In this document: piece by piece, positions 28,348 to 63,962 of the stretch
Layout: each line of letters opens with the position of its first letter
How positions within the stretch are numbered: the first letter of the stretch is position 1
NCBI GenBank assembly: GCA_023078555.1
Contig: CM041203.1
Span: 5,540,538 to 5,604,537, forward strand
DNA: 64,000 nt
Source: Ulva prolifera
Taxonomy: Eukaryota > Chlorophyta > Ulvophyceae > Ulvales > Ulvaceae
Direction of reading: 5' to 3'
Position numbers and translations under genes: made by a program
The notes under the pieces: model-generated
Told to the model about the DNA's origin: nothing
The model's input: the letters and a program-made list of their open reading frames with translations, nothing else
The model's database searches: none

Positions 28348-31300
28348 ATGGATCCAATTACAGTCATCGAGGGCGTTGTGACGGTCGTCGGAGCTGTTCA
28401 CTCGATCGTGCAGGCCTTGCGAGAGTACAAGCTGAACCTCGAAGCTATCGATGACTTAGCGCTGTACGTCTCATGAATCTCGAGATATTGACATGGATTA
28501 AGATCCTCTTGCTGTGAATAACTCAGCTGGACCGTGTCATGCACCCAAGGCTTGTTGTCCGAAAAGCCGACTTGCAAGTTGAAATGCCACACAAGTTGAA
28601 GTACGGCCGTTGCTTTCGTCAACATCCAGTGACTATCATCCTGTAGCGGTGCTAGTTGTGCAACTATCGAGCGTTGTTTACAATGCTGGCCCCAACGCTC
28701 ACTCCTGCATGGCCCAGGCTGTCACAGTGTGTTGCAAGGACAAAGCAAGGCAGGTAGCACCGCGAGCAACAACAACCGATACCAGGGGAATCACACGCAC
28801 GCAATCAGCCACACGCAGCTGTCGCAGTGTGCATGCTGCAGTGTTGGGTCGCGCTGCAGCAATTCCAGGGCTGTCACCCACAGCCAGAAACCATGCTTTC
28901 TGGCTGCAGCACTGAACATTCGGAATTGTGACATGTGAACGGTCCCGACGACCCAACACTGGTATGCTGCCAAACAGCAAACATGCACTAGAAGCCGACT
29001 TGCCTTTGAAAAGGTTCCCCCAACTTTAGGGCTGCAAGGATGCCGCAAATGCAGCTATGCCACTATGTCAGCAGTGTGCGTGTGAGCGGTGGGACTCGCC
29101 TGCAGTGCATTGTTGGGTCGCTGGGACATGTTGCATTTTGGACCCCACTCACATGCAACAATTCCGAATATTTAGGTATCACTTCCGGGTGGCAGCCCTG
29201 AAAATTCAGTAAGGGAACGCAACGTTGCTGTAGTGCCCTTGCCACACGTGTACATGCCACCTGCGCAGCTCCTCCGAATTCACATAGCTCACATGGTTAG
29301 CTTCCGACCAGCAGCGAAACTGCGTCTGCATACTTTCAACACGCGAGCTGTAGTACAGGTTTCTGGTGACCTTGGCAAAAGTGCTGAAGGAGCAGAGGCG
29401 GGACCGCATCCCTCCTGCGGGGCTGCATGTCCTGCAAGCCATAGAAAAAGAGACACAGAAGATTCACACCACGGTCTCAAACTTCCAGCAGAGCCACCGG
29501 GTGATGAAGGCCATAAAAGCCAGCTCCACCGTGGTGCGACGCTGACTCTGCTGGATATATCTCGGATCTCCATCTACCTGCACATGCTTCACAAGTGTGA
29601 TTGCTTTACATTTCAACAAGCTCACTTTCCGCCCACCGCGGGTATGTATGCACCTACCTGCACTGACGCGTGCGGATCCGGGCTGTGCATGGCGCGGGGT
29701 GTGATGCTTCGGAGTGGAGTGTGTGGGGCAGTGTCTGCGATGCTGGAAATGTGGCCGTATTCACAGTTGTGCGGAAGCATTTGAGTTCTGTGTGCTGTGT
29801 AAATGCGAGATTTGTCCTGCAGGCACAGCTACGGGAGTCCCGGGTGGTTGTGCACGAGCACTGGACACTCTACCTTGCATCCGTCTCCGCCGCAGGCGGT
29901 TCGCCTGTGCGCGCCGGATGTGGCTCGGACGTCAGTCCACCCTCTGATCAGGGCTCCTCATCCACGGTGTATGAACACCTGCAACTATTCTATGGCGCCT
30001 TTGCCGCGTTGTCCGATGGTGGCGGCCGCGTGGACGCCGGGCTCGCGGGCAAGCTGCGCGAGCTGACTCAGCGACCGCCTGGTGACATCAGCGATGACCA
30101 GGAGCGCTACGTTGCGGCCGTGGTGATGCACATGCAACGGCAGGCGGCGGCGAAGGTGCCCGCGGACGCATTTGTTGTTGCTGTGCATGTTCGAGGGCAC
30201 CTTGCGCAGATGCACGAGGCGATGGAGCGCAGCTTTGCGGCCAGCATGGCCGGCCTAAAAGCGCAGCTGGAGCTCATCTCCGAGCAAAATGCGATCATCG
30301 TACAGGGGCAACAAGCGATTCTCAAACAGGTCAGGGGCTGCGAGGTAGTTCTCCAGGCGTTGGCCTATGGCACGCCGGTGCGCTCGCTTCGGGCGGACGA
30401 GCAGGCCGTCCTAGACATGCACACTGCGGAGGTGGAGAAGGAGGAGAGCTTTGTAGTCGACCGTAATGTGATGGTCTGCCCAAGAACGGGCCTGCAGTTT
30501 ACGCGGCAGGGCGACACGGTGCCGACGGTCGTGCCCGGGTGCGGCTGCGTGGTAGCGCGTGCTATGGCTGAGGTGTACTTGCGGGACGAGCAGTGTGTGG
30601 TGTGCTATCAGCACGTGTGCGTGCCAGAGGGCACAAAGTTCAAGTTGGAACCAGATAAAGCCGCGCTTCTTTTCCTCGAGGACCTCGAGAACGACAGGAT
30701 GCCCGCTATCGCAAAGTTTGATGTGAAAGCAGACTTTGTGGAAGACGAAGGGGGGGAGGACACGTGGCGGGCGGGGGGGGAGGGGGTCGTGCGGTTCGGC
30801 ACGCTGCGCGGGAATCGTGTCGCCGTCAAAACGGTCGTCTTTGCTAGGGCCGAGGCGGCCACTAGGCAGCGGCGCTGCCGCCGGCATGTGCTGCTGAACA
30901 GCATATGCATGCAGCAGTGTGCCGCGAGGGCGTCAGACTACGTGTGCGAGATCGTCGGGCTGTGCTGGGAGGAGACTCGGGCCCACATCGCGATGCCACT
31001 GTATGCAACCACGCTGCAGGAGCACGTGTTGCCGGTGGCCGGGGAGGATCCGCCCGATGCCTCTGCACCGCGTGCTGGGCCTGTGCTGCGCGCTGACACG
31101 GGCCGTGTACGACGTGCACCGCTGCGGCATTCTCCACTGCGATATCACGCCTGCAAATGTTCTGCTCGCGGACGACGGCTCGCCGCGGCTCACGGACTTC
31201 GGGCTGTCACACATCGACCGCAACGGCCGCAAGACACGGACTTCGATGGGCCATACGTTGCTTTACTCGGCGCCAGAGCAAGTCAACGGCAAGGTGAACG

Positions 31301-34300
31301 AGGCAACGGATCTGTTTGCGCTCGGGCGGACGCTGGCGTTTGCGGCTACAGGGGTCGTGCCGTCACCCGACGGGCAGAAGCTGCCGAAGCAGCCGCCGGG
31401 CCTGCTGCAGCAGCTGGAGCTACTCACGGGGAGTGCAGAGGCTCGGCAGAAGATCAATGTTGTTCAAGTCATCGGCGTGTTTCAGAGCCTCCTGTCCACG
31501 CACGGCCCAGTGCCGGTGCGGGACAGCCCTTCTTGACTCCGTTCTCCGGGCACAGGGCAATAACAAATTTGTTAAAGACCGCCTTTCCGGCGCTGACCCC
31601 ACACCGAGTTTGCGATGGCGTCTTGTACTGTCAGACGCCTAGACCTAACTCCACTTGGGACTAGGCAGTCAACATGATGCAAGGTCATGTAACAGTGGCG
31701 GTGAAATGGCGGATCCTGTGTGCAGATCGAAAGGTTGCAAACCGTGGAGGACTTGTCAGCGCGACTGGCGTTTGGGGATGAAGTCGACCTGGAGGGCCGA
31801 GAGATGAGCCTGTCCAATAGCACTCCAGCCCCCCACAGCGTGGCTGTGCCCGTGTCTCTCACTGAGCAGCTGGGAGGCGGCCTGTGCTGCGTCACCTGGG
31901 CGCTCCAGGATGCCCCAGAGGCCGCGTGCTGGGACCTCGCGCAGCACGGCGCTATGCTGTGCAACGTGACCCTTCACATCCCGGAGCACGGGTGTTTGCA
32001 TGTGCTGGCTGGCGACTCCCCCGGGACGTGGCGAAACATGACCATCGCCGGTGCGAGGTCCCTCGATGTGCCTCTGACATACGATAGTATGCATTGCCTG
32101 AACCACGGGATGCTCCACGGACTCTGAGAAACCGACCATGTTTGCAAGACCCACTAGCAGCCGTCAATGCCTGTGCTGCCTGATACATCCTAGGCCACTT
32201 TGGATATGATTGTCGATCACATGTCGCTGTACCTGAAATTATATGTCCAATTCACCCATGCTGTCCCGATAAGTCAGGATGGTGACTCATGTGATCAAAC
32301 TAGTAATCCAGTTTGCTGGAGGTCTGACCATATGCTGTGTGTTGCGCAGGTGGAGGCCACAGCGTGGTGATCGTTGAGGGCACGTTGACCCTCAACACTG
32401 TGGACTTAGACGGTTGCACCCTAGTAGCCGCCACAGCCACACACATCGAAGCCTCAAAGTGCACGTTCACAAATGCCCGCCTCGCTATCTGTGCCTCCGC
32501 GGCAGGCGCTCATGTCACCCTGTCCGCGTGCCGCATACATGACTGCCGCTCCGGCATTGCGGCTCTCGATGGGGCTACTGCGGGAGCCAGCGCAGAGAGC
32601 GCGGTCGAGTGTCAAGGGGACGGGTGCTGTGTGTCTGCTCAGGGGGTTGGGTCTTCTGTCGTGGTCTGTGACGGCTCGACGCTTTCATCCCGCACTGTGA
32701 CATCCTCTCCGGACATTTCGCTGTGGCTTGGGTGCGCCACCGCTGTTAGTGGCGCTTCCATCAAGCTGCATGAAGCCAAACTGTCCACGGCAGAGGGCTC
32801 GCAGGCGGCGGGCGGAGTCCTGGTGCATGGGGAGGGCACCACAGCCACTCTTAGCGACTGCAGCTTCGCTGTGTCAGCAAACGCGGTCTCCGCGCTTGCT
32901 GGCGGGAGGGTGACGGTCCGCCAAAGTACTGCTACGGGCGGCGAATGTGGGCTGTGCGTCGCTGGGTCAGGCTCTCAGGTAGAATCAAACGAATGCACTG
33001 TGTCCAAGAGCACAGTCAGCTGTGCTGACGTCCGCGCCGGGGGCCGCCTGGACGCCGTCAAGAGTAGCTTCTGCAGCAGCGCAAAGATGGGGGTGTCTGC
33101 GCATGGCTGTGGCTCGTCGCTCGATCTCAAAGAGTGCAATGTGGCGCTGAACGCAGAGTGGGGGGTGTTTGTGAGTGGGCGCGCAGTTGCTTCTGTGCAA
33201 GGTGGGAAGGCCGAGCGGAACAATTGGGACGGGATGTGCGTCTGTGAAAAGGCCGAGGCCACGCTCACATGCTTCAGCCTCCTCTCCAGCAAGCGAGGGG
33301 GGGGCCTGATGGTCAACCACGCAGGATCCCGCGCCACTGCCGTAAGCTGCGAGTTTGCGAGAAACGCGCTCCACGGGGCCCGCGCTTACGGCGGCGGCGT
33401 GCTGTGCGCCGAAGCATGCAGCGCAGCGGAAAATGGCTTGCGTGAGGCGTTCTCAGCACCTGTGGCCACTGGCCGCTCGCATGCACACCCGTCAATGCGG
33501 CTGCTGCTTGAAGACCAGGCGGACTCCGACGCCAGCGCGTGTGGGTTCTACGCACATGGCGCCGGCACCAGCGTGACTGCCGGGAAGAGCTGCAAGGCGA
33601 CTGCGAACTGCGGCGGCGGGTTTCTCGCGGCGCGGGGCGCCACACTCACGGTCACGGACAGCGAAGCCAGTGGCAACGCTGGCCCGGGGGCCGCCGTCCG
33701 CCGTGAAGCCACGGCCAAGCTTTTGAACAGCAACTTCAATACATCGGTGGCCGGATCAGGGGTAGAGGTCTACGATGCGGGCACGACTGTGGAGCTGTCA
33801 GGCTGCAAGGCAGAGCGTAACACGAGTGCCGGTGTGCGCGTACAAGGCGGCGCCGCGTTGACGGTGCATGCGCTGCACGCATTGAACAACAAGGAGGACG
33901 GGATGCTGCTGGTGGGGTGCAGTGCAACGGCGGCAAATGGCGCTCAGACGACCGTGGAGGTGAAGTCCTGCATTGCCGACAGCAACACAAAGTGCGGTGT
34001 GCGAGTCCACAACGGTGCCTTGCTGACGGTGCACACCCTCAATGCATGGAGCAACGACGAGGACGGGCTGTTGATCTCGGGAGCTGGCTCGGCTGCTTCA
34101 GGGGTGACGAAAGAATCTGTGAAATCGGGAAAGTGCGTTGCCACTGACAACCTTAAGCGTGGGATCTGCGTCCGCGACGGCGCCGCAATGACCATGCATG
34201 CGGTGGTAGCCTCGCAGAACACGGGGGATGGGCTTCTGCTGATGGGCAGCGGTGGTACAGCCGCCGGAGCAATGAAGGCTGCACATGCATCAATGGAGCT

Positions 34301-35486
34301 CACGCAGTGCAGAGCGGAGGGTAACGAAGGCTGCGGTGTCTGCGTCAAGGCCGGCGCAGCGCTGACCGCGAAGACCCTGCATGCATGCAACAACAAAACT
34401 GGCGGCGTGCTGATTGAGGGGAGCGGCTCCCCCACACCTGGCACGAAAACCTTCACCCCGTCATCTGCAAAGGTGACGGACTGCTCCGCAACGGAGAATG
34501 CTGTCAGCGGTGTCCAGGTCCGCGGCGGTGCGAGTTTGACAGTGCAAGCCGTGCATGCATCGGACAACGCGGCGGCAGGGCTGCTGCTGGAGGGGAGCGG
34601 CTCATCCGTTGTTGCGAGCAACCTTACAGCCAAGTCAAATCGCGACAGTGGCGCCCATGTGCACACCGCCGCGCACCTGAGGGCTGACCGCTTCACAGCG
34701 GCGGAGAATCATGTCGCTGGGCTCCGTGTTGAGCAACACGCGGTTGCGCGTGTCATGAGCGCACGTATCTCCGGCACGGTCGCCGGGAGCGGTGTGGTCG
34801 CTGACAGCCACGGCAGCGCCCTGCTGATGCTGTACTGCAAAGTCTTCGACAACAGTGCGTATGGGCTGCTTTCACAGGGTGCGGCAACCATCAAGATGTC
34901 AAGTTACGAGGGTCCGTCCCGTGTCGAAGGGAATCACCGATCGAATGCGAGAGTGACAGGGGGGGGGTTCCTGCTGCTAGACAATGTCAAGTTGAGCGGG
35001 AGTCAGGCGGGCGGGGTGGTAGCGGACGGGGAGGGGACATCGGCGATGCTCGCGGATTGCACGGTGTCGGACAATGGAGCAGCGGGGCTGGCGGTGCATG
35101 GCGGTGCGACGCTGACGTGCCAGCGCTCGACCGTCGCAGACAACAAACAGGAGGGTGTGGAGGTGAAGGCTGCAGGGAAGGTGCAGCTGAGCAGAGCGAG
35201 CGTGCGGGGGAGTGCGCAGGGCAGCGGGGTGCTGGTCCACGGCGCCGGGTCGTCGGCGTCGCTGATCTTCTGTGAAGCCGCGGAGAACGATGTCGGGATT
35301 GACGTGCGAGAGGGGGGACGGGCGGAGGTGCAGAGCAGCGGCACGGCAGACAATGGCAGGGCGGGGGTGGCTGTTGACCACAGCAGCAAGCTCGAGATGA
35401 GCCGCTGCAAGAGTGTGGATGCGACGCCATTCATCGCGCCGAAAGTGAGGGGATGTTTGGTGCGTGCAGAGTGCACGCCAAAGTAG
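28348..35486 (+). CDS. Helical bundle, RING/U-box-like module, protein kinase and beta-helix fusion (locus 1; one frameshift)
   Basis: Five exons: 28348-28463, 29359-29533, 29823-31515, 31726-32050 and 32350-35486. Donors are GTACGT and then GTGCGA/GTGCGG; acceptors end in CAG. Phases agree at every join, giving about 1,814 residues once one extra base near 31045-31060 is allowed for. Order: residues 1-97 an amphipathic helical bundle (VHSIVQALREYKLNLEAIDD); a helical stretch; about 308-360 a RING/U-box-like cysteine module (MVCPRTGLQF, VVPGCGCVV, CVVC); about 420-661 a kinase with VAVK, HCDITPANVLL, DFG and APE; 662-770 a linker; 770-1814 a right-handed parallel beta-helix of short Gly/Val/Cys-rich rungs. 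The frameshift splits the kinase between its lobes. It is either a sequencing error or a disabling mutation. The paralogue at 53892-63962 lacks the frameshift but has lost the catalytic residues. Substrate and location unknown. Confidence 0.75.
28731..28815 (+). repeat. R2 (SINE-like) element in intron 1 of locus 1
   Basis: Head gttgcaaggacaaagcaagg followed by caggtagcaccgcgagcaac and gggaatcacacgcacgcaat. Same orientation as the host gene. Confidence 0.7.
28839..28961 (+). mobile_element. R1 terminal-inverted-repeat element in intron 1 of locus 1
   Basis: Perfect 13-base terminal inverted repeat CAGTGTTGGGTCG / CGACCCAACACTG, 123 bases long. The core includes gcagcaattccagggctgtc and acattcggaattgtg. 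It is flanked by GCATGCTG and GTATGCTG, a likely 8-base target duplication with one change. An internal insertion around tttctggctgcag makes it longer than its relatives. Confidence 0.85.
29105..29228 (-). mobile_element. R1 element, diverged copy in reverse orientation
   Basis: Contains cattgttgggtcgc at one end and, read on the minus strand, the R1 core ttttcagggctgccaccc and aatattcggaattgttgcatg. The outer terminal repeat is not intact. It lies in the same intron as the copy at 28839. Confidence 0.65.
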
Positions 35487-48395: not shown

Positions 48396-49323
48396 CATAG
48401 ACACCCACGCACGCGACACCCACCACGCCCAAAAAACAAAAAAAGATACGACTGTGTGGCCTGAGTCCACGACTTGAACGCATGGGGTCCATCGCACGAA
48501 TGTGCGAATGCTTATTGCCTCGCCCTCTTTCACCGCATGCCAGCAGTATGGTTGTTTGGACTTTTGCCGAACCGTTTGCTGGTGGCCGCTGGCGTGCAGC
48601 TAACGTTCGTTGAATGCATATGCTGCTGAGTCTTGCTGCTGCAGCTGCGTCCGACGTGGATATCTCTGGGCATTGAACCCGGTTTCCGGCGAACCTCTCT
48701 GCAGCTCGACGAATTTAGCCTCTGAAAACGTGCAGTGCTGCTGTTAAGCAAGTGGGCAAAGCGGCATTCATCATCAACATGTCGACGCGAACCGGCCAGC
48801 TGTGCTGTTTTTACTGGAGTCGCATCACTAAATTGCAGACTACATAAATAGCTTCACCGTTAAGAACAATGTGACTCGGATAATGCACTCCAGATCACGT
48901 GGAAAATGACCTGAGCACTCTTTTCCGCCGATCAATGTCTGTCCACTGGTACAAGCAACTGGCAACAGCAGAGCAGCGTACACGCTCTGTGATCTGCGGC
49001 CATCCAATTCGAGTCCGGTCCTCTTTATATGATTTACATATCGAGATTCCGTGCCCGGCTTGCGGTAGGGAGCAAGCCGTTCATGGTAACGTGCCGCGGG
49101 ATTGCGTCCCAACGCCAAGTCTCGGTTGGCTCGGAGCAGAGAAGACAAAGACACGTATTCTGTCTACAGACAAGCGAAATTCGGTACGCCTTCTGCCTTG
49201 CGCCCTGTCTGCGACAGTTCATGACACGTAGCGGATAACAGCACACTGGCACGCACAATGCAAGACTGTAGGAGGACTATGTAAAGCACGGCACGCACCA
49301 TTGCGAAGCGCTACACATACAAT
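48396..49323. other. No supported gene upstream of the third beta-helix gene
   Basis: I looked here for a kinase exon like those of the other two beta-helix genes and found none. Only short unrelated frames occur. Confidence 0.5.
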
Positions 49324-52300
49324 ATGCTCAATGAGATTGCGTCATGCATGCAGGCCAAGGTCACTAGCCTGGAACAACTCTGTGCCCAGGTTACTGCTAA
49401 CAACGTGCCAAGAATCGACTTGCACTCACAAGATCTGAAGCTGGAAAATAGCATCTCCGCACACATAACCACCAAGTTCATCGTGTGGCGGGCATCTCCG
49501 CATGGCTGTGGCGTGCACTCTGGCACAGTCCATATCCCCAAAGGCAGCACACTTCTCCTCGACGGATTTGGCGCCCACTTCAACACAGTCAAGTTTTCGG
49601 GTATGGAATCCTCTGTTGTAGCTGCAGCGTGAGGGTCACTGCGTATCCTGTCACTTCCTATCGGATCAGGTCTGAGGCGAAAACAGCTGCTGTGTCATGG
49701 TCTTACAGCATCTGCAAGAGCGGCTCCATGACGACCTGCTGGATCCTTGTCGCTGTGATTCTAGCCTCCGAGATCCAGACAGGTCCGCGGCTAGCCCGAC
49801 GGTGCCGTTGGCTTTGGCCTGCATATGGCACAATGGTGCAATTGTCGGTCAACCTCCTTTAGTGCTTGACACAGCCACCAGCAGAGCTTACAGCTGCCAC
49901 AGTTGTGTTACAAGGACAAAGCAAGCGAGGCAGGTAGCACCGCAAGCAAGAACCAGGCGAACCGCACACCACGCAACAAGCCACACGCAGTTGTGTGGCC
50001 ATACCAGTAGATCATGCATGTGACTTGTGCCTCATGGGTCCCACAAGAACGGACTGGGAAGCCAAGCACGTCATCCAATCTCAACTGCCCGGGCCGTGAA
50101 AAGCAGCCGCACAGAGAGCAAAGCAGCACACGCGCTGCCTCTCCATCAGTCCCGCGGTCCTCAAAGGCGTCCTACCATCATACCTACCATCATACCTATG
50201 CGCCTCGTGCGCTGTGACGTCCCGCATACATTACACCGCCGCATGAGCACAGTCCGTGGCCAGTTCTCCACGGAGACCCGCATGCAGGTGGCTCCGTCGT
50301 GTGCACCGGCGCGGAGTATTCCGGCACCTTCCGCAACTGCACCTTCGACACATGCCCGCTGTACGCCGTGCACGGCGCCGCCGTCACGCTGTCCCACTGC
50401 ACCCTCACCGGCGGCGTCCCGGCCCTCGTCGCGAGCGGCCCCGGCACCTCTGTCGCCCTCCGCCGCTGCCACGTCCACAGCGACATCAGCGGCATCACGG
50501 TCGAGGCCGGCGCGACGCTGCGCGCGGCCTCGGTGAGCCTCCGCGGCCTCGCGCACGGCGTGTACATGTTCATCAACGACCCCGGCAGCCGCGCGGCGCT
50601 CCGCGACAGCGTGCTCAGCGGCCCCCGCGGCCGCGTCAACAACGCGTTCGGCGCGTTCGTGCAAGGCGGCGCCCTCAGCCTCCTCCGCTGCCAAGTCTCA
50701 TGCATCCGCATGGCCGTGTACGCGCTCGCGGCGTCCACAGTCGAGGTGCGGGGCGGGTTCATGGAGGACTGTGGCTGGGGGGTGACCGTTGTCGGCGGCG
50801 GCCACACGCTCGTGCGTGATGTTGACATCAGCCTCATGAATTGGACCGACGAGTGGGGGGCCTACCCGATTGCAGTCGCGCTCGGCAAGCGGCTCGCACC
50901 GGAGGGCGCGGCGGGGCAAGTTGAGCGGTGCACGATGTACGGCAGCGTCGCACACGGCATGCATGTCAGCTACGGCGCAAAGGGCGCGATGCAGCTGTGC
51001 CACATGGTGTGTGCCGCCGGCGGTGCTTCGGTGGAGTCCGAGCGCAGCCGCGTGACTGTAGCAGACTGTTACATCGGGGACTCAGATGAATGCTGCAAGG
51101 TGGCGTCGGCGGGGTGCGCGATGCGGGTTGAGCGCTGTGAGATGCAGGGCCGGAACGGCGCATGCGTCGCGTCCGGGGGCTCGCTCTCCATCGCCGACTC
51201 GAAGCTGCGGGGGTGCGCCGAAGCGGTTCAGGGGGTCGTCGCCGCGGTGGACTCTGCGGCGCTGGTGCTGCTGCGCTGCGCTGTGGCAGGGTCCGGCCTC
51301 GGCGTGCGTGTCATGCATGCCGCGGCGAGGGTCGTCGACACGTCCGTGTCGGACGTCGTCAGCAGGTTCCTGGCGCGGGCGCCCGCGGACGGGGTGCCAG
51401 TGTGCTGCGGGTCCGGGTACGCGTGTGTGGGTGGGAACCTGGTTGTGACCGGGGGGGCGTTGGAGAACTGCGTCGTGGGTGCGATGGTGCGTGAGGGGCC
51501 GGGCGGGAAACACGGCAGCGTGGAGATGCAGCGTGTCACGCTGAGGAGCTACATTGTGGGTGTGCGTGGGTACGAGGGGAGTGAGGTGGCGCTGATGGAC
51601 TGCGAGTTCACGGCGGGAAAGTGCGGCAGCCGTGACCTGGTGCCGATGGAGAATGTCGGGCCGGGGGCAGGCTTCGAGACCGCTGTGATACTGCACGACT
51701 CAGACAGCGGGAGGGTGGAGCGATGTCGGTTTGAGGGTCACTGGTGCGACATCGCGGCGAGAACACGCCAGCCGACGATCATCCGTGACTGCGTGCATGA
51801 ATCTGCGGCGCCAAAGAGCTCATGCATCCGGGTGGAGGCAGAGACCGTGGTGGAGGGGTGCCGCTTCAGCGGCGTGGAGCAAGGGGTCTCCTGTGAGGCT
51901 GCGAGCTGCACGGTGCGGAGGTGCGAGTTTGGGCCGGGCGTGCGTGAGTCCGCCATCAGGGCGATGCAGAGCGGCCGTGCGATGGCGATCGATTGCTCCG
52001 TCACAGACAGCAAGGTTGCGCTGCACGTGCAAGATCAGGGGTCGGTGCACGCACAGGACTGTATCTTTACCCGGGTGGAGCGCGGCTGCGTGCTCCAGGG
52101 AGGGGGCTGCTCGGCAGCTGCCAAGCGCGTCCAGATGCGGGGCGGTGCCTGCTTCGTGCACGCCGCGACCTGCAGTGCCTCGAAGCCCACCGTGAAGCTC
52201 GTTGAGTGCAGCATCTCGGACTGCGAGCACACGGGGGTGTACCTGGCAGGCGCCTCAGGGATGCTGCTAAGGTGCGACATCCTAAGATGTGCGGTGGGGA

Positions 52301-52818
52301 TATCGCTGCAGCACGCGGCCTCGGCCCGCGTCCGGAATTCACTTGTTTCGGGCGGCGGCAGCGGGTTCCTGGTCGCCGCTGCGTCAGCCACCGCCGCGTG
52401 CGGTATCTGCGAGAGGGCCGGGGACGCGTCGCTGGAGGCTGCGCGCCGCGCGCTGCGTGCTGCGGAGGGAGGCGAACAGCCGCGGGCACGCTGCGCGCAT
52501 GAGGGCGCTCCAGCGCGGCTGCAGCTGGAGGGGGTCGAGGTGGTGGACTGCCGGGAGGAGGGGCTCCGGGTGGGGCCGCTGGGGCTTGTGGACGCCAGCG
52601 ATGTCCTCATGCGGGGTTGCCGCCGGAGCGTTTCGGTGGAGTCGCTGGTTGAGAGGAGCCAGTTCCGGAACTGCTCGGCTGAGCATGCGGCGCCTTCGCC
52701 TGCTGAGGGGGGGGCTAAGCCGGTGGAGGGCTGGCGGTATGAGTGGGAGGGCGCGGAGAAGTGCTTTGTGCGGCGGCCGGAGGCTGTCCCCGGCATCGAC
52801 GTGGTGACGCCGCCGTGA
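49324..52818 (+). CDS. Right-handed parallel beta-helix protein (third paralogue, no kinase)
   Basis: Two exons: 49324-49600 and 50288-52818, joined at phase 1 (donor GTATGG, acceptor GCATGCAG) to give about 935 residues. The first exon (VTSLEQLCAQVTANNVPRID, GTVHIPKGSTLLLDGF, NTVKFSG) is homologous to exon 4 of the two kinase fusions (NVTLHIPEHGCLHVLAG, NMTIAG) and ends at the same intron position. The second exon is a long series of beta-helix rungs (CTLTGGVPALVASGPGTSVA, VQGGALSLLRCQVSC, MEDCGWGVTVVGGG). No kinase or RING-like exon was found upstream, so this copy either lost the N-terminal part or the part lies beyond recognition; exon 1 could also start by splicing at GCATGCAG near 49355. 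The intron holds an R2 element. Beta-helix rungs often bind polysaccharide or protein surfaces, but no ligand is evident. Confidence 0.7.
49905..49995 (+). repeat. R2 (SINE-like) element in the intron of the third beta-helix gene
   Basis: gttacaaggacaaagcaagc, gaggcaggtagcaccgcaag, aaccaggcgaaccgcacacc. Near-identical inverted relative at 46905-47015. Confidence 0.85.
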
Positions 52819-53891: not shown

Positions 53892-56800
53892 CTATGGTGT
53901 ACAGCCTACCCGCACCAGCGCCCCCTTGGCCCGTGAAGGCGCCAGAAACGCAGTCTCATCTTCGCTGCTAGACGCCGACATGTCGAGCCTACTCGACTGG
54001 TCCACCACAGCCCCCGCCGTGGCGTTCCTTGCCGTGCTGCTCCGCTTGACCTCCACCCTCGCCCCATCCCTCACGTCAACCCCTGCAGCAGCGTTGTCCA
54101 ACACAACGCAGCGCACCGCCGCGACAGCCGTCCCTACGCCGCGCGCGAGGAGCCCACCCCCCCCAGTGCTCCCCAGCAGATGCACCCCTGTGAGATGTAC
54201 AGTACTGCCCGATTGTACGTCTACACCCGCCTGAGCGTTGGCCAGCGTGGTTGAGCGCTGACACGCCAGCGCCGCTCCGGCCTGCACGATGGCCCCACAG
54301 CCACGGTTCTCCTGAAGGCAGCACTCCGTCAAAACGACGGATGTGTCCTCCCCGTCAGCACACAAACCGCTCCCCTGCACGCTCCCGAGCAGCAAGGCGC
54401 TGTCGAGCATCGCGGCCCCGCTCGTGTCGACTTGCACATTTGACAAGACGTTGTTTGCGATGCGGGACTGCCCCGTATGTCCCGTCACCTTCGCGCTACC
54501 TCCGTGCCGCACCCACACCCCATGCCCGGCGCTCCTGGCGACATCGCAGAACAGAAGCTTCACGGTCGATGACTCGGCAACAGTGACGCCGCTGCCGCCG
54601 ACTGTGTCATGCACAGTCGCGCTTTGGAGCCTCGCCTCGCTGCGGTCTCTGACGTGGATGCCGGCCAGGGAGTTGCTTCGCGCCATGCATGACTCAACAG
54701 TCAGCTGTGCGAGGGTCTGCGCTGTCACACCGCCGCCGCGGTTGGACGCCACCGTCAGCGTTCCCACTGACGCGGATGAGCCGCTGCCCTCCGCCAGCAA
54801 TCCCACGCCGTCGTTGTGTTCTGCGTGAAGTGCGTGCGAGGTCATCACGGCGCCGTGTTGGACGTGGAATCCGCACCTCTTATTGCGCTCGGCTGTGAGG
54901 GGGCCCCTCGGAGAATCTCCACGGCCGTCCTCGCTCGAACTAACCCCGACCATAGAGGAACAGCTGCCGGTGACGAGCACCCCATCCTCGGCGTTCCCCA
55001 ATGCATGCAGTGCATGCACTTTCACCTTTGCACCGAGCTTGACGTGGACGCCACATCCTGCGTTGCTCTTGCACGTGCAAGCCTTCACGACTGCGCTTGT
55101 CTGGGATGCACCCTGATGTGCGGCCCCTGGCGGCATGGCGCCGGACCCGACCAGCAGCAGCCCGTCCTCGTTGTTGTGCAATGCATGGAGCCCATGCACG
55201 GTGACTGCTGCACCGTCTTGCGCGCGGACGCCGCATCTGCTGTTGCCGCTCACCCTGCAGCCCGCCAGCTCAGCGGTCGTCCCGGCGTAGAGCTCCACGC
55301 CTGACCCCGCCACCGAGTCGGTGAACGCGCTGTTTGAGAGCCTGACAGTGGCCTGACGATGGGCGGCGGCGCCTGGCCCGCCGTTTGCAGTCGCCGTGCT
55401 GTCTGCAACTTCCATCTGTGCCCCGTGAGCCGCGACAAACCCGCCCGCGCAATTCCGCGTTGCGGCGCACCCTCTCGTCGCAAACACCTGAGTCTTGCGA
55501 CCATGCGCATAGAATCCGCACGCGCTGGTGCGCAAGTCCGCTTCATCCGCGAGGATCAACCCCATCGCTGCATGCGTGTGCGCAAACCCAGACCGCCCCT
55601 GGCCACTCGAAGCCAGCCCGGCCGAACCGGACGCCGACCGCCGCACCGGCGCTGAATACGCCGTCCGCGAGCCGTTCTGAAACGCATTGCATGCCACAGC
55701 ACGCAGCGTGCTCCCATCGTACGCGCGGGCGCCGTGAAGCGAATTGTTGGAGAAGTCACATCGGTTCGCCTCCACGACGGACCCCGGGTTATTCACAAAC
55801 ACGCCGCCGCCCCGCTTGCTGGACAGCACGTTGAAGGCGGAAAGCTCCGCCTTGGCGCCTTCGCAGACGTAAAGGCCATCCCAGATGTTCTTCTCTGCTT
55901 TCCCTCGCTGTATGTCGGCGGTCGCACCGCCGCCCACATGCATGCCCCACTGTGCGTTCCCGGCCACCGTGCAGTCAGTGAGAGCCGCGTGCGTGCCGCC
56001 GCCGAACACCCTCACGCCACTCGCCTTCAGGCTGCTACAGAGACTGCATTTGACCAGCTTCAGGTGCCCTCCGGCATTGGCGTCAGCGCAGCTCTGCACA
56101 CACTGAGACACAGTACACCCCTCGGCATCGACTGTGGACCCTGCCCCCGTCACCCTCACGCCACTCGCGCCACCAGAGGAGGTGCATCGCTCCAGCGTCA
56201 CCTTCCCGCCAGCTACCGCGGACACCGCGCAAGCCGACACAGACAGGTCGCAGTCGCTCAGCGCGGCACTCGTGCCGTCCCCATGCACCAGAACTCCGCC
56301 CACCGACCCCGGCCCATCCACCGCAAACGCTCTAAACATCCGCGAGTCGTTTCTGGGGCCGCGGACGCATACCGCTGCGCCATGCACAGCGGCGGCGCAC
56401 CCTAGCCACAACTCCGAAACCCGGTTCTTTGTGTCCAGAGACATCGTCGATCCGTTGCTCACGATTGATGAACCCGGGCCTTGAGCAGAGATGCAATACC
56501 CCGCACCCGTGCATTGGATGCTGCTCCCTGTGTTGACCTCGACTGAGGCGCCACCTATGGCCACAACCCCCGTCTCACAGCCACGGATCTGGCAGGCGTG
56601 CAGGCTGACCTTTGTGGTAGTCCCAGATGCGAGAACGGAGAGCTTCGCGTTGGAGAGCACACAGTCAGTCGCGTTGACGTCGGCGCCGTGAGTGGCTTCC
56701 AGGGTGCAGCCGAGAAAGGTCACCGAGTCGAGCGTGAGCCTGTTGGAGGCTCCGTGGGCGTCCACGACAACCGCGCTGTGTTCCCCACCTGCATGTTTGT

Positions 56801-59800
56801 GTCAAACTCTGGTACTGTGTGAATGTGCATGGTATTGTATTCACACATAACGAATGGACTGACTCCTTGCTATGTCAGACTCTCGGTCGGACCGGCTCCT
56901 GTCAGGTACTGCACCAGCTTCCGGCCCGGTGCCACGGACACAGCGCACTCGGCCACAGCAGTGTCAGATCATAGAAAATGAGTCCAAAATACTCAGGTAT
57001 AATTTCTGGTTTGTAGCTCTGAAATGGGGGCAAGGCAACCCGACCATGCAGGCCGACTGGGCGCAACTCCTGAGATTGGCTGTGGTGAAAACAAACTCGC
57101 TCATATCTACTTATGCTGATGAGCGAGTTTATATGTATAAAATACAAAATGTCCCACTGATACATATGTGGAAAATGGAGGGGCGCCTGCATAAACCACC
57201 GGGAATGGGCACGGTTGCTCCTAATGATGAGCGGCATATGAGCGACGGCCTGTGTAGACGTGGCGTCACACCACACACTAGCCACAGGGCAAGCAGTCAC
57301 AAAACTACACATCCAGCATACCGGTATACTGGACTATACCGGTATACTGGACTATGCCGGTATGCAAGTTATATACGACTTGCACGCACAAATGACGTCC
57401 CATCCGCACACGCTACAGAGGCTCGCACCTGCTATGGTCACGTGCCGCCACGTCCCCGGAGATTCGCCGCCAAGCACATACAAGCGCCCATGCTCCGGGA
57501 TGCGGAGGGTCACGTTGCACAGCACGGTGCCGTGCTGCGCGAGGTCCCAGCACGCGGCCCCCGGAGCATCCTGGAGCGCCCAGCCGATGCAGCTCCAGCC
57601 GCCCGGCAGCTGCTCAGTGCGAGACACGGGCAAGCGCACGCTGCGGGTCGCGGGGGCGCTGCCGGAGAGGCAGATCTCTCGGCCGCCCAGACCTACCTCC
57701 TCCCCAAACGCCAGCCGGGCGGACAGGGCTTCGATCGTCTGCACCCGCTCTCCCTGCACAACTCGCGCTGGCCATCCTCATGCATGTGCACATGCATGAT
57801 GTGCCACGAAAAATTGAGTTTTGCAGCACAGTCAGATAGATTGATGGCCCTCTGCACTGGCCAGCCGCACATGCATGCACTACTGTTGTAGATACATATA
57901 TGGAAGCCTATCTGGATATGCGCAAGACAGTGTTGTAGCAACGGGATGCACTGTTGTCATCATGTTCTTCCACGGAAACCATTACTAATAGCATGGACAT
58001 TGTTCGCAGGTGTTCAAATCAGATTAGTCAAATCAGTCAGGCAGTTGTGGTCATGATCAAGTCAGTATCGGTAGACGGCAGGGGAGGGTTGGCCCGCACC
58101 GGCATTGGGCCATGCACAGACAAGAGGCTCTCAAACACGCCGATCACCTGCACGAGGCTGACCTCCTGCCGCGCCTCCTCACCCCCCGTCAGCGCTTCCA
58201 GCTGCTGCCGAAGCTCTGGCGGCTCCCGCGGCAGCTCGTGGCCGTGCACGCGCGACGGCGCCACCCCCGTAGCCGCAAATGCCAGCGTCCGCCCGAGCGC
58301 AAAGATGTCTGCCGCCTGCTCCACCCTCCTGCAGCGCGGCCTGTCAGCCGACTCGGCCTGCTCCGGCGCCGCATACAGCGCCGGGTCCTGGCCTAGCGTC
58401 CGAGCGCGTCCGCCGCTCAACAGCTCGCGGCCGATGTTCGACAGCCCGAAGCCGGTGAGCCGCGGCGAGCCGTCCTCCGCAAGGAGCACGTTCGCCGGCG
58501 TGATGCCGCAGTGGATGATGCGACGACGGTGCACGTCATACACGGCCTGTGAGAGAGCGCGCCCCAGAGCCATCACGCGGTGCAGCTTCATCTTGCCGGA
58601 CTCCTCCGCCAGCACCTGGTCCTCTAGGGTGGCCCCGTACATCGGGATCGCGACGTGTGCGCGGCCACGGCCCTCGTCCCAGCAGAGACCGACGATCTTG
58701 CACACGTACTCTGACGCCCGCGCAGCGCACTGCTGCATGCATATGCTGTTGAGCAGCACGTGCCGCATGCACCGCCACCTCCAGGTGGTCGCCTGCGGCT
58801 CGGAAAACTCAACGGTGTTCACAGCCACGCGCGCGCCGCGCAGCGTGCCGCAGCGCACCCCCCCCTCCTTCCCCGTTCGCCTAATGCGCCCCTCCGCGTC
58901 CTCCACAAAGTCCGTCTCCACATCAAACTGCGGGATGGCGGGGACGCGGTTGTTCCTCAGGTCCTCGAGAAATACCAGCGTGGCGTTGTCGGTGTGCAGA
59001 TCCTCTGGTTCGCCCGGTTGCGGCTGGTCACGTGTGCGATCGCAGATGCCACACTTCCTCTCGCGCTGGTACAACACGGCGATATCCCGTGCGACAACGC
59101 AGCCACAGCCCGGCACTACTGTCGGCGCCGTGTTGCCGTCCTCCGTGAACGGCAGCCGACTCGCAGGGCAGATCATCACATTCTCCTCCACAACGAACCG
59201 CGCGTCCCGCTCCACCGCAGCGGTGTGCTTGTCAATCAGCTGCTGATCCTCCCGCGCCAGGTCGCGCGTCGACCCGCCGTACGCGATCGCCTGAAGCGCC
59301 GGCGTGACTCGATTGATCGCAGAGAGGACTTGCTTCTGGCCCTCTGCGATGTCCATGGTCTGTTGCGACAGCTGCGCAAGCTGCTCCTGCAGCTCTGCCA
59401 CCCCGGCCGAGACGCTGCGCTCGATTGCCACCCACATCATCTCCAGATGCGCCCGGACATTCGGCCGCGCGGCCCCCGGAGCCGCAACAAAGAAGGCGCT
59501 GTCCGGCACACGCGCAGCCGCCTGCTGCTGTAGCTGCGTCACTACAGCCGCCAGGTTGCGCTCCTGGTCATCAGTGACGATGCCGGGCGGGTGCTGAGTC
59601 AGCTGGCGCAGGCACCTGTCGGCCGCCGTGGCGTCCGCGCCGCCGCCGCCCTCGCAGAGGGTGCTCACCGCGCTCCACAGGAATGCGAGGTGCTGAGTCA
59701 GGCCGAGTGGCATTGAGTCCCCCGCCGCCTCGGCCGAGACGTGCGCGGCGACGGCAGGGTTCGTGAGCGGTGCGGCCGCCGCATGCATGCGGGTGCCGCC

Positions 59801-62800
59801 GGCAGATGAGAGGGCGCAGAGGTAGAGGGTCCAGTGCTCGTGCAGGGCGACGCGTGACTTCCGCAGCTGCTCCTGCACGCCAGCATCAGTGTTGGGTCGC
59901 TTTGCAGCATTTTCAGGGATGCCACCTAAAACAGAGCTGGATATTCGGAATTGTTCAATGTGATCAGGCCCGATGACCCAACACTGTCCTGCACGTCAGC
60001 ACCCCGGCTGTAGCGCAGGGCCTTGACGTGCGACTTGTGCACAGGACTGAGGTGACGCTCCGACCACACGTCACAGTGTTCCAGTCCACACAAACGACCA
60101 AGCCCGGCGGCAGGCCCGCATGAGGCGGGCGCCGGCCGGGCCGCCGCATGGGGCTGCCGGTGCCGCGCGGGCGGCGGGGTCGTGTAGCGTGTTGGCATGT
60201 GGGTCTGGGTCGCGTGCGGGTGCGAGGGTCGGGTGTCGGTGTGTTACAAAGGAAAAAGCCGGAGGGGCCGGTAGCACCGCCAGAACCAAAAGGGAGAGCA
60301 CGAACAACGCAAAGCGCACGCAGCAGGAGAGCAACAGCCAACGCCAAGGCAGAACAAGCACCCACACACCTCCACGCTCCCACATACTACCACACGAACC
60401 ACACACTGAAACCCGACCCACGCACCCACGCACCCGCACGCGGCCCAGACCCAAACCCAAACACACACCCAAGCACCCACAAACCCACACGCCAACACGC
60501 CACACGACCCCGCCGCCCGCGCGGCTGCGGCAGCCCCATGCAGCGGCCCGGCCGGCGCCGGCCCCACACGGAAGCCGCCGGGGGCCCCCAGGACCCCCGC
60601 CCCAATGCCCCGATCAGGCCAGCCCCGAGCGCCGGGACAACACACCGGGTGTCGGTGTGTGGGTGCGTGTGGGGGTGGGTGCGTGTGTTGGTGCGTGGGA
60701 GTGTGGGGGTGTGTGGGTGCTTGTTAAGCCTTGGCGTTGGCTGTTACTCTCCTGCTGCGTGCGCATTGCGTTTCTTGTGCTCTCCCTTTTGGTCCTGGCG
60801 GTGCTACCGGCCCCTCCGGCTTTTTCCTTTGTAACACAAGCCTCCCACCCTACACCCACAAGCACACCCACACGCCCACCCCCACTCGCACCCCACCCAT
60901 CAGCCAGGCGCGAGAGCCCCAAAAGCGCATGCATCCAAGGCTGCCAAGCAAAGAAGCAGCGAGACCCCAACAACAATCCCCGCCCCAGGGAGGCCCCCGC
61001 CTCCCCCAACACAACCCACCCCGCCCTGCCCCTGCACACCACCCCGCCCACCCGCAAACTTCCTGGATGTGAGAATATATCGCCAAGTTCATAGGTACAT
61101 TGACTTTAATGCATGGCATAGGAAGAGGCCCACTGATATGCGTATGGGTGAGAAATCCGGATTTACTTGACATCATGTGACATGAAAATCGTATGAAGAC
61201 TTGAAACGTTTCACTGCACCGCAATAGCCCGTTGGCCAAGGTGACCAGGTGTTCAACATGTACTCGCAGTGCTGGCTATGAACTGTGGCGCCCCCGGAAC
61301 ATACGACTCCACTGCGTTTCAGAATCAGAGACCACGGCGGCTCACCCGCGCCCCGATCCACCATGTGGTCGTGACTGCATCAGCTTGAGCTCGGGCCAGC
61401 TGCAGAGCTCCACATGGCGTGAGCAGTGATGTGCAGCGCTGGAACGGGGCACGGAACCAGGCGGCTGCGAGGCTCTACTGGTAGCCATTAGCTATTCAGC
61501 TGTCCGGCTATAGCCATCATGATTTGGCGGCTCCAGCTACAATAGTATAGGCACAGTATCATACGCTAGCAGTCGAGAGTTCTGCTCTGAGAGGTTCAAA
61601 GAGTTCATGGACCAGGCCGGCATCACCGTCGCAAACCGAGAAAGGCACTCGGATTGATGATTAGTATAGTGCGGTATTGCGGTGCGCATGCATGCATGGC
61701 GTCACGTACACTCACGGTACAGCGCACGACTGTCAAATCACTACAAGTGATGCCAGTGTTCGTGCGGACTCGGTGACGGCCAGGTGCACATGAACCCGGC
61801 GCGCTCTCATTGCATGGTCGGCATGCACACGCACAGCAATGCGTTTGTGTGTACCTTGCAAGGTGTATGCAAGGTATCACTTTCTGCAGCTGAATTTGTT
61901 TGTGAAGATCGTATTTATCGTCCAATACCTGTCTGGCTGTATTGTTCTGGACACGGGACTGAAAAAGCCCACCAGTAACCTCATTGACCCTTGTGGTCAA
62001 GTGTCACCGTGTTGCAAGCCCGGTCTGGGTCGATCCAGTGGTGCCACCTGCCTCTCCGGGTTTCAAAGTGAGTGGTCCTTGTTGCATGTGCAGCAGAGCA
62101 TGCACACGGCGTGCTGTTGCAGGGACGCACCGCCGTTGAGCTAGCTTGGACGACTTTGATGACCAGGCGCCTCCGCATGAACGTTGACAGAGTGTCCTTC
62201 ACGGCGCCGCACTCCGCCTCGATGGCTGCTAGGATGCGCAGCCCGGCCGGGGTCACCAGGGTCCTCTTCTGCTCCCCCAGCACCGCGGCCATGCACGTCA
62301 GAAACCTGCATCCAGTTGGAATTCGCAGGCTTGCGGCACCATTCGTCATTCAGAAGATCGAGGCAAAACAGTCCATTGCACTGGAATGTATCAGCGGATG
62401 GCAACCGGTTCGTGAGTGTGCATCGACGATACATCCACCACAGTGCTGTCCACCGGTCGACGCGGCAGGGTGTCACCTCAACTCGCAGATGTATCGGCTG
62501 GCAGGCTAGCCTGAGATCGTGAGAGAATGCTGCCGATAGCACGTGTCATGGGATGCCGGAAGTGTGCAGAGGGGATGGATGACCGCGGAAAGTCGCGTAA
62601 AACTACTCGACAGGGCAGTCCGTCACTTCATCAGTATGCATCTGTCTACGTGCATGTTCTGGAGGGTATCTGGATGTACCGAGCCGTATCCGATACATGA
62701 GTCATGTACAGGGCATTGACAACTCTGAATGGATGGGAGCACATGCCGACGGGGTAAACCGTGTGCTTGCCTTCTGGCAATTGTTTAAACACACAGTCGG

Positions 62801-63962
62801 CACAGTCGCTACACAGGCACTGAGCATGCTGAGGCCCGGGTGACAGCTGCGAAACTGCTGCTGTGATCGCCATGGGAACGGCAGGAACTTCGTGTAAAGC
62901 TTAGCACTGGCAGTACTCAGGCTGCCCCACTGTACAAAACTGGCCATGGGGTAACCTAAATTTCTAGTGATGGAGGCTGTTGCGAGACACTTGCGGGGCT
63001 CGTGATTGCAGATCCACACCAAGCCAACGATCAGAGCTTTACGTTCGCATGCCAAAAGCATACACGCCCATAGCACACAGCCCTGCAGGGCGTTTGTGAC
63101 TGGTGCCCTCTGCGTTGCAGAGTTGGGTCGCCGGGCCCGATCACTTAGAATTATTACTCATGCGTAGTCGTACTCATGCGTACTCCTCATGGGAGCCCCA
63201 ACAATGCTGCATGGCGACCCAACACTGCTGCATTGACAGCAGAGAGCGTCAGGCGAGGCAATTGCAGCCAGTGCAGAGCTTCAACTCCTGCATCCGCTCA
63301 GGCAAACATGTCCTAAATTATATTGCTCTATATACAAGCAACATGCAGCCTGTGTACATGCAGTCTGCGTAACCACAAGTCGGTGGTTTCGAAGATGCCA
63401 ATGAATGTCGCGTAAATCGCCACGCTCTACCTGTCGAGCACACAACGAGTGCCATGATAATAGTTCAGCACACGTGCAGGCCATGCGCACGCACATATGT
63501 ACAGCGAAGTCGGGTGGGAGCCTCAAGCCTGGTACGGCTCGGAAGCGTGCGATCTACCTGGTATGAGGTATCTACTCTGGTATGCATGCCCTACACAAAA
63601 GCAGAAGCTCTGAATGTCACCATAAACGGACCTGCTTGATCTGCGGTACCCAGGTCACACGAAACACGGACAGCGGGCTCTGAGCGTCCCAGGATTCGTT
63701 GAGTTCTGCCAGTGATCGTGCCGTGCATGTCGGTCACTTGAGGCACGTCCGACGCTGTTGAATTGCTGCTACTCTAAGCGTTTGCATACTCATATCGAGG
63801 TTGTGATACGTGCTGCGACGCAAAAGGGGAAGCACACTGCATGAAATCGTCAGCAGCACGCAGGCTGGCCTTGTACAGCTGCCACGCCTCGAACAGCCTG
63901 TGAACGGCCTTGATCACTGCTAGCGTGGCCTCAATAGATCCAGTCACGGTGATGGGCTCCAT
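53892..63962 (-). CDS. Helical bundle, RING/U-box-like module, pseudokinase and beta-helix fusion (locus 2)
   Basis: Minus-strand exons 63962-63838, 62305-62131, 59872-58100, 57753-57429 and 56788-53892 total 5,295 nt, exactly 1,765 codons with stop. Exons 2 and 4 match locus 1 in length (175 and 325 nt), and all phases agree. Donors: GTGTGC, GTGCGT, GTGCGG, GTGCGA. Residues 1-100 are a helical bundle (VHRLFEAWQLYKASLRAADD, FLTCMAAVLGEQK); about 330-380 hold the cysteine module (MICPASRLPF, VVPGCGCVV, CGIC); the kinase fold follows to 691; exon 4 is a linker; 800-1764 are beta-helix rungs. The kinase has VAVN for VAVK, HCGITPANVLL for HCD and GFG for DFG, so catalysis should be lost. An N-terminal helical bundle plus pseudokinase recalls MLKL-type proteins, but this is an analogy of layout, not shown homology. 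Intron 2 is 2.3 kb and full of repeats. Confidence 0.8.
59886..59986 (-). mobile_element. R1 element with 15-bp flanking duplication at a splice acceptor
   Basis: About 100 bases bounded by the 12-base inverted repeat CAGTGTTGGGTC / GACCCAACACTG, with the core gcagcattttcagggatgcc and gatattcggaattgttc. It is flanked by TCCTGCACGCCAGCA (59871-59885) and TCCTGCACGTCAGCA (59987-60001), one change. On the gene strand the duplicated sequence contains the acceptor GTGCAG of exon 3 of locus 2, so the insertion duplicated the acceptor. Confidence 0.9.
60118..60575. repeat. GC-rich inverted repeat
   Basis: Sequence around 60130-60190 (gcatggggctgccg, cgcgggcggcggggtcgtgt) recurs inverted at about 60495-60560 (acgaccccgccgcccgcgcg, gcagccccatgc). 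The arms enclose an R2 element and a cac-rich low-complexity stretch. All of it lies in intron 2 of locus 2. Confidence 0.8.
60241..60370 (+). repeat. R2 (SINE-like) element, longest copy
   Basis: gtgttacaaaggaaaaagcc, ggaggggccggtagcaccgc, cagaaccaaaagggagagca, cgcagcaggagagcaacagc, caacgccaagg. Together with 60725-60842 it gives the best view of the full unit, about 125-130 bases. Confidence 0.9.
60725..60842 (-). repeat. R2 (SINE-like) element, inverted partner
   Basis: Minus-strand reading is nearly identical to 60241-60370 over about 120 bases (gttacaaaggaaaaagccgg ... agtaacagccaacgccaagg). Confidence 0.9.
63118..63227 (+). mobile_element. R1-end element in intron 1 of locus 2
   Basis: Terminal repeats CAGAGTTGGGTCGCC and GGCGACCCAACACTG, 110 bases. 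Flanked by CTGCGTTG (63110-63117) and CTGCATTG (63228-63235), a likely 8-base target duplication with one change. The interior (a short actcatgcgta tandem) differs from other R1 copies, so it shares ends but not core. Confidence 0.8.

What the first reader, a model, noticed from the sequence alone, without database searches (positions are those of the whole stretch)
28348..35486. Kinase fused to a long right-handed beta-helix, with RING/U-box-like and helical-bundle modules in front
Seen: five exons with compatible phases join an N-terminal helical bundle, a Cys-rich RING/U-box-like module, a kinase domain and about 1,040 residues of beta-helix rungs. The kinase exon ends at ..HGPVP|GTGCGG in locus 1 and ..HGPMP|GTGCGG in locus 2, after which the two sequences diverge, as expected at an exon end. 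The next exons both start at phase 0 and have the same length. Inference: one protein couples a recognition-type beta-helix to a kinase and a ubiquitin-type module. I know of no named family with this order.
Basis: partly seen in the sequence, partly recalled or inferred. Interest (0 to 1): 0.92.

Follow-up and report, generated by a model that had tools for sequence, protein, structure and literature searches.

The report
Kinase-beta-helix receptor-like gene family
An unidentified photosynthetic eukaryote, probably a green alga, carries a multi-copy gene family that joins a helical bundle, a small zinc module and a protein kinase to a long beta-helix, an arrangement that looks like an intracellular sensor and that I could not match to a named family.

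Summary
The architecture is real at sequence level and belongs to a multi-copy family. Locus 2 (minus strand, 63962-53892) joins in silico from five exons into one open 1,764-residue chain: helical bundle, coiled region, zinc module, kinase, linker, right-handed beta-helix. Locus 1 (28348-35486) has the same exons and phases, but its kinase exon is not one open frame (about 31032-31056), so as assembled it does not encode the full chain. Corrections: the 'RING/U-box' keeps four invariant cysteines in 12 aligned members, not eight ligands, and locus 2's kinase lacks K, D and D. In the own genome, 25 of 31 zinc-kinase matches have a linker or beta-helix match within 3.5 kb downstream on the same strand, 0 of 31 upstream or on the other strand. 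On C9 the end of a kinase and the linker share one open frame. The N-terminal bundle is only weakly MLKL-like. Best reading: an intracellular sensor whose beta-helix recognises something and drives the kinase and perhaps the bundle. Architecture well supported, function inferred. The large protein database was off; no transcripts were available.

The parts
28348..28463 (+). locus 1 exon 1: start codon and first part of the N-terminal helical bundle
   Evidence: donor GTACG, phase 2; phase-2 donors also read by eye in paralogues
29359..29533 (+). locus 1 exon 2: middle of the N-terminal helical bundle, weakly MLKL_N-like
29823..31515 (+). locus 1 exon 3: last bundle helix, helical/coiled region, zinc module, kinase
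   Evidence: 1,693 nt, not one open frame
30477..30605 (+). locus 1 zinc (RING-like) module, from the first to the last of four Cys that are invariant in 12 aligned members
   Evidence: Rtf2 RING E 0.0032, 17.3 bits, cut-off 27.4
31032..31056 (+). frame break in the locus 1 kinase exon (7-base difference from locus 2 in the alignment)
31057..31515 (+). locus 1 kinase C-lobe in the second frame (HCD, DFG present)
   Evidence: Pkinase E 3.5e-17, 63.1 bits (slightly longer piece)
31726..32050 (+). locus 1 exon 4: linker/cap of the beta-helix
32350..35486 (+). locus 1 exon 5: right-handed beta-helix, stop at 35486
   Evidence: Beta_helix E 5.5e-59; model pLDDT 77.8; fold matches
63838..63962 (-). 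locus 2 exon 1
   Evidence: weak match to locus 1 exon 1, E 0.943
62131..62305 (-). locus 2 exon 2
58100..59872 (-). locus 2 exon 3: helical region, zinc module and pseudokinase in one open frame
57429..57753 (-). locus 2 exon 4: linker
53892..56788 (-). locus 2 exon 5: right-handed beta-helix
   Evidence: Beta_helix E 8.2e-50
49285..52818 (+). beta-helix gene without a kinase in front, used as a contrast: a linker-like reading frame with an in-frame ATG, then a beta-helix reading frame

Best explanation
Shown from sequence, by in-silico splicing: a gene family whose fullest intact member here (locus 2) encodes one polypeptide with, in order, an N-terminal helical bundle, a helical/coiled brace, a four-cysteine RING-like module, a protein kinase (catalytic residues kept in some copies, lost in others), a short linker and a long right-handed beta-helix; in several C1 and C9 copies a second linker/beta-helix unit follows. 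Inferred: it is an intracellular sensor. By inspection there is no signal peptide or membrane helix. The beta-helix binds a variable ligand, binding frees or clusters the kinase, and the kinase (or, in pseudokinase copies, the conformational switch) releases the N-terminal bundle, which signals or, if it is truly MLKL-like, acts on membranes. The zinc module may assemble complexes or recruit ubiquitin machinery. Locus 1 is a sister copy that is either broken or mis-assembled in its kinase.
Against: No transcript or protein evidence. Locus 1 has a frame break. The MLKL assignment is below every cut-off, and three reversed controls gave unrelated families at similar or better E-values. The C1 beta-helix omega is 0.52 when B's first unit is used; between the two window loci the beta-helix is no faster than the rest (0.374); the C9 pair has omega 0.97 over 169 codons. 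Within 6 kb, 5 of 31 also have a match upstream and 1 on the opposite strand. Locus 1 exon 4 has an in-frame ATG at codon 26. The structure model of exon 3 failed (pLDDT 36), so neither zinc module nor kinase was checked by fold. The five C2-type copies have no beta-helix match downstream.
Confidence: 0.45

Rival explanations
1. A cytosolic substrate-selection machine rather than an immune sensor: the beta-helix holds a protein substrate, as the CASH/beta-helix region of FBXO11 does, and the kinase and zinc module modify it.
For: Same kinds of parts; FBXO11's CASH domains consist of right-handed beta-helices and are important for substrate recognition (passages of PMC8825234). The zinc module has a weak Rtf2-RING lead.
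Against: No F-box and no UBR zinc finger appeared in the Pfam scans of the window pieces; the module keeps only four Cys in the 12 aligned members. Tandem expansion fits a sensor family at least as well (inference).
Confidence: 0.28
2. Locus 1 is a decaying copy: the kinase frame break is a real mutation, and only truncated products or a pseudogene remain. (Compatible with the best explanation for the family.)
For: Exon 3 length 1 modulo 3. 64 GT-AG choices would restore the frame, but the shortest are 19, 46 and 85 nt, far below this gene's known introns (210 nt and up), and longer ones remove kinase sequence (inference). At least two other matches carry stops (C4:6443168, C9:289044), and the C4 copy's exon 2 is split over two frames.
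Against: The C-lobe after the break (omega 0.365), exon 4 (0.293) and exon 5 (0.374) show constraint like the part before it (0.389), and a 1,044-codon beta-helix is open, so the break is recent or an assembly error.
Confidence: 0.4
3. The beta-helix is a separate gene that happens to follow the kinase.
For: Beta-helix genes without a kinase exist, one in this window, and many beta-helix reading frames lie on C2 at 134-570 kb, where the zinc-kinase searches found nothing.
Against: No start codon for exon 4 upstream of it, conserved splice phases, one open frame in C9, order and spacing at 25 of 31 matches.
Confidence: 0.05
4. A carbohydrate-binding kinase that monitors cell-wall or exopolysaccharide fragments.
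For: Structural matches include alginate epimerases, PL6 lyases and phage tailspikes.
Against: Many right-handed beta-helices match these, so the fold does not name a ligand; no secretion signal is evident by inspection (sequence; hydropathy).
Confidence: 0.12

Closest known systems
MLKL proteins (animal MLKL, plant MLKLs, fungal homologues)
   Same: N-terminal helical bundle and a kinase or pseudokinase in one chain; weak sequence lead only. MLKLs of animals and plants share the HeLo four-helix bundle (passages of PMC9950082; PMC12881547).
   Different: Long C-terminal beta-helix and an inserted zinc module; catalytic residues kept in several copies. Glomeromycotina MLKL homologues carry Sel1 repeats (passage of PMC8778642). 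Plant MLKL C-terminal repeats were not looked up.
FBXO11 F-box ubiquitin ligase
   Same: Right-handed beta-helix (CASH) region for substrate recognition beside a ubiquitin-type module (passages of PMC8825234).
   Different: No F-box or UBR finger found here; a kinase is present; the zinc module is of another kind.
Plant receptor kinases and NLR receptors
   Same: Tandem gene arrays with a conserved signalling part and a more variable part; the comparison rests on general knowledge of those receptors.
   Different: No LRR or NB-ARC domain found in the chain; beta-helix in that place.
Rtf2 / SP-RING type RING-like domains
   Same: Few zinc ligands in a RING-sized module; Rtf2 is the only Pfam lead, E 0.0032.
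   Different: Under the curated cut-off; the SP-RING resemblance is recalled, not tested.

Membership tests
Protein kinase (Pkinase, PF00069) | Pfam match over curated cut-off | tested here: met
   locus 2 40.4 bits, locus 1 C-lobe 63.1 bits, cut-off 31.7
Protein kinase (Pkinase, PF00069) | catalytic Lys, HRD-type Asp, DFG Asp | tested here: inconclusive
   locus 1 VAVK/HCD/DFG but split by the frame break; locus 2 VAVN/HCG/GFG lacks all three; C1 and C9b copies keep Lys, HLD and DFG; C9a has Lys, HLD and DLG; C7 HLD and DFG (its Lys was not aligned); the five C2 copies lack Lys and the HRD Asp and have DFS
Right-handed beta-helix (Beta_helix, PF13229) | Pfam match over cut-off and beta-helix fold | tested here: met
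   198.8 and 169 bits, cut-off 25.9; model of locus 1 exon 5 and fold matches
MLKL | N-terminal four-helix bundle of the MLKL/HeLo type | tested here: inconclusive
   MLKL_N hit in 3 of 6 members, best E 0.028, 14.3 bits against cut-off 27; five MLKL sequences of the PDB at E 0.67-0.87 with 8 other rows above them; 3 reversed controls reach E 0.0012, 0.0017 and 0.0068 with other families; no model of the bundle was made
MLKL | membrane permeabilisation and cell death | not testable with these tools
   needs expression
RING finger E3 | eight zinc ligands in cross-brace order | tested here: not met
   four invariant Cys in 12 aligned members, of 36 places found
RING finger E3 | E3 ligase activity | not testable with these tools
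   needs a biochemical assay
U-box | Pfam U-box match | tested here: not met
   no U-box listed in scans of the exon 3 pieces
FBXO11-type F-box protein | F-box | tested here: not met
   none listed in Pfam scans of the window pieces
LRR receptor kinase / NLR | LRR or NB-ARC domain in the chain | tested here: not met
   none listed in Pfam scans of the window pieces

The most novel reading that the evidence does not exclude
A previously undescribed class of intracellular immune receptor in algae, in which a right-handed beta-helix takes the place of LRRs as the diversifying recognition part and is fused, through an active or pseudo kinase, directly to an MLKL-like executioner bundle: sensor, switch and executioner in one chain.
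Probability: 0.22. Interest if true: 0.88.

Novelty: new variant of a known kind. Interest (0 to 1): 0.64.

Why it matters
If the inference holds, algae built a sensor on a beta-helix rather than on leucine-rich repeats, and coupled it in one chain to a kinase and perhaps to a cell-death bundle. Immune receptors of algae are poorly known (general knowledge, not searched here), and this family gives defined loci, an intact member and clear domains to test. Even without an immune role, a multi-copy kinase/beta-helix fusion with strong constraint on the kinase C-lobe in one copy pair is unusual.

Tried and rejected
Separate genes for kinase and beta-helix: rejected on start codons, phases, spacing and the single-frame paralogue. 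Canonical RING or U-box: rejected. A small intron mending the locus 1 kinase: 64 GT-AG choices exist, the shortest 19, 46 and 85 nt; not accepted. Structure of exon 3: no usable model (pLDDT 36), not searched further. Viral contigs: no relative; prokaryote genomes: one locus, a kinase stretch in Nonomuraea. Phages, near mode: no match. FBXO11 was not among the rows shown in the fold searches, which does not exclude it. Two paper searches aimed at the fusion (6 and 5 papers) and two on neighbouring topics listed no paper whose title or abstract start describes a kinase/beta-helix fusion; of these I saw passages of six papers and none in full.

Rows and counts: ignore 'exon3 RING..N-lobe', computed out of frame. 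Searches used only part of the hit lists; one search repeats the count with all 46 rows, all 38, 4 rows, and 28 of 118 rows (those on my reading near a zinc-kinase match). The genome tool scores only its best candidates, so absences are not proof. The 31 matches include the two window loci, C36 matches that duplicate C9 ones, and one short match with a stop (C9:289044). At first I took the second C9 copy (253257-253775) as a second kinase-linker frame; one search shows that it lacks zinc module and kinase, so I dropped that claim.

Full report
What is there. Locus 2 on the minus strand has the same five exons; exon 2 (175 nt) and exon 4 (325 nt) are equal in length in both loci. Locus 2 joins in silico to 1,764 residues without a stop. 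Introns 3 and 4 align at 45% and 44% over aligned bases while exon 4 is 78% identical, so the exon borders are where similarity begins and ends.

The frame break. In locus 1 the kinase exon is 1,693 nt, one base over a multiple of three; the alignment to locus 2 shows a 7-base difference near 31031-31037. The first part runs in one frame to about 31031, and the C-lobe with HCD and DFG runs in another from 31057. Omega between the loci is 0.389 before the break, 0.365 after it, 0.293 in exon 4, 0.374 in exon 5, 0.213 in exon 1 and 0.572 in exon 2. So the break is recent or an assembly error. As assembled, locus 1 does not encode the whole chain.

The modules. N-terminal bundle: Pfam MLKL_N is the only family matched by more than one of six members (3 of 6, best E 0.028), at 14.3 bits or less against a cut-off of 27, in a roughly consistent register (my reading). 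A profile of the six hits five MLKL sequences of the PDB at E 0.67-0.87 over about 100 residues, but eight other rows rank above them, and three reversed controls reach E 0.0012, 0.0017 and 0.0068 with other families. I call this suggestive, no more. Zinc module: four Cys invariant in the 12 members aligned, weak Rtf2 lead; not a canonical RING, no U-box listed. Kinase: locus 2 40.4 bits, locus 1 C-lobe 63.1 bits. By residues, locus 1 and the C1 and C9b copies look catalytic (VAVK or IAVK; HCD or HLD; DFG), C9a has DLG, locus 2 lacks all three, and the five C2 copies lack the Lys and the HRD Asp. Beta-helix: 198.8 and 169 bits, model pLDDT 77.8, matches to Vag8, AlgG, NosD and tailspikes.

The family. 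The genome (88.9 Mb, 44 contigs, unnamed) gives 31 matches to a C1 copy's zinc/N-lobe part, in arrays on C1 and C9, and five full-length copies of another type on C2. Within 3.5 kb, 25 of the 31 have a linker or beta-helix match downstream on the same strand; 0 of 31 upstream and 0 of 31 on the opposite strand; 0 of 5 for the C2 type. Within 6 kb the figures are 26 downstream, 5 upstream and 1 opposite. Copies C1A, C1B, C4, C9b and C7, and the C9 copy at 253-256 kb, show one or more of the same N-terminal exons or the coiled region. C9b has linker and beta-helix frames downstream. On C9 (243384-243989) the end of the kinase and the linker are one open frame; the rest of that kinase and the beta-helix lie in neighbouring frames. 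The next C9 copy has lost zinc module and kinase: the start of its zinc exon runs in one frame straight into the same proline-rich tail and linker, which shows that the front part and the beta-helix cap belong to one gene and that the middle can drop out. On C1 a beta-helix and a second linker lie in one 614-codon frame, by their frame lengths and register. Beta-helix genes without a kinase also exist: the one at 49285-52818 has a linker-like frame with an in-frame ATG, whereas exon 4 of both kinase loci has none upstream of it (locus 1 has one at codon 26 inside). Many beta-helix frames lie on C2 at 134-570 kb, where the zinc-kinase searches found nothing; those lists are lower bounds.

Selection. 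Between copies A and B on C1 the kinase C-lobe has 1 nonsynonymous and 21 synonymous differences (omega 0.016), the zinc/N-lobe part has omega 0.255, the beta-helix 0.90 against B's second unit and 0.52 against its first, the tail 0.71, exon 1 0.66. C-lobe and beta-helix (second unit) differ at p 5e-8. This fits a conserved signalling part and a freer recognition part. Against it: between the window loci the beta-helix is no faster than the rest (0.374); the low dS of the C1 beta-helix pair (0.094) may mean gene conversion (inference); and the C9 pair has omega 0.97 over 169 codons, the differences lying mostly in the proline-rich tail.

Organism. 38 matches to the light-harvesting family PF00504 make it photosynthetic; 'green alga' is my inference. 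No species was identified.

How it may work. Inferred: the beta-helix binds, the kinase switches, the bundle acts. No signal peptide is evident by inspection, and the most hydrophobic 19-residue stretch of locus 2 averages 1.64 on the Kyte-Doolittle scale, inside the beta-helix, so I place it in the cytosol. Which ligand, and whether the bundle acts on membranes, is unknown.

Known relatives. MLKL proteins share bundle plus kinase (passages of PMC9950082, and PMC12881547); FBXO11 shares a beta-helix for substrate recognition (passages of PMC8825234). The paper searches that ran listed nothing that describes this order, and the protein database could not be queried, so novelty is provisional.

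Noticed in passing
window 49285-52818 (+): A beta-helix gene without a kinase in front, with a linker-like reading frame bearing an in-frame ATG, between the two kinase loci.
   Followed up: partly
window 22452-24239 (+), 39651-41147 (+), 42794-44956 (-): Long reading frames with leucine-rich-repeat matches; only LRR_6 in the first is over its curated cut-off.
   Followed up: no
G000 contig C2, 134-570 kb: Many beta-helix reading frames, a large share of 850-1,081 codons, without a detected zinc-kinase.
   Followed up: partly
G000 contig C2, 736-795 kb: Five zinc-module pseudokinase genes (HCG or HGG, DFS) with no beta-helix match within 6 kb downstream.
   Followed up: partly
G000 contig C9, 253-256 kb (-): A family copy that has lost zinc module and kinase, joining the start of the zinc exon in frame to the tail and linker.
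   Followed up: partly
G000 contig C36 and C9 about 315-321 kb: C36 matches have the same scores as C9 matches, so it may be a duplicate or allelic contig.
   Followed up: no
window 60051-61094: Low-complexity, repeat-like stretch within intron 2 of locus 2, which is 2,258 nt long.
   Followed up: no
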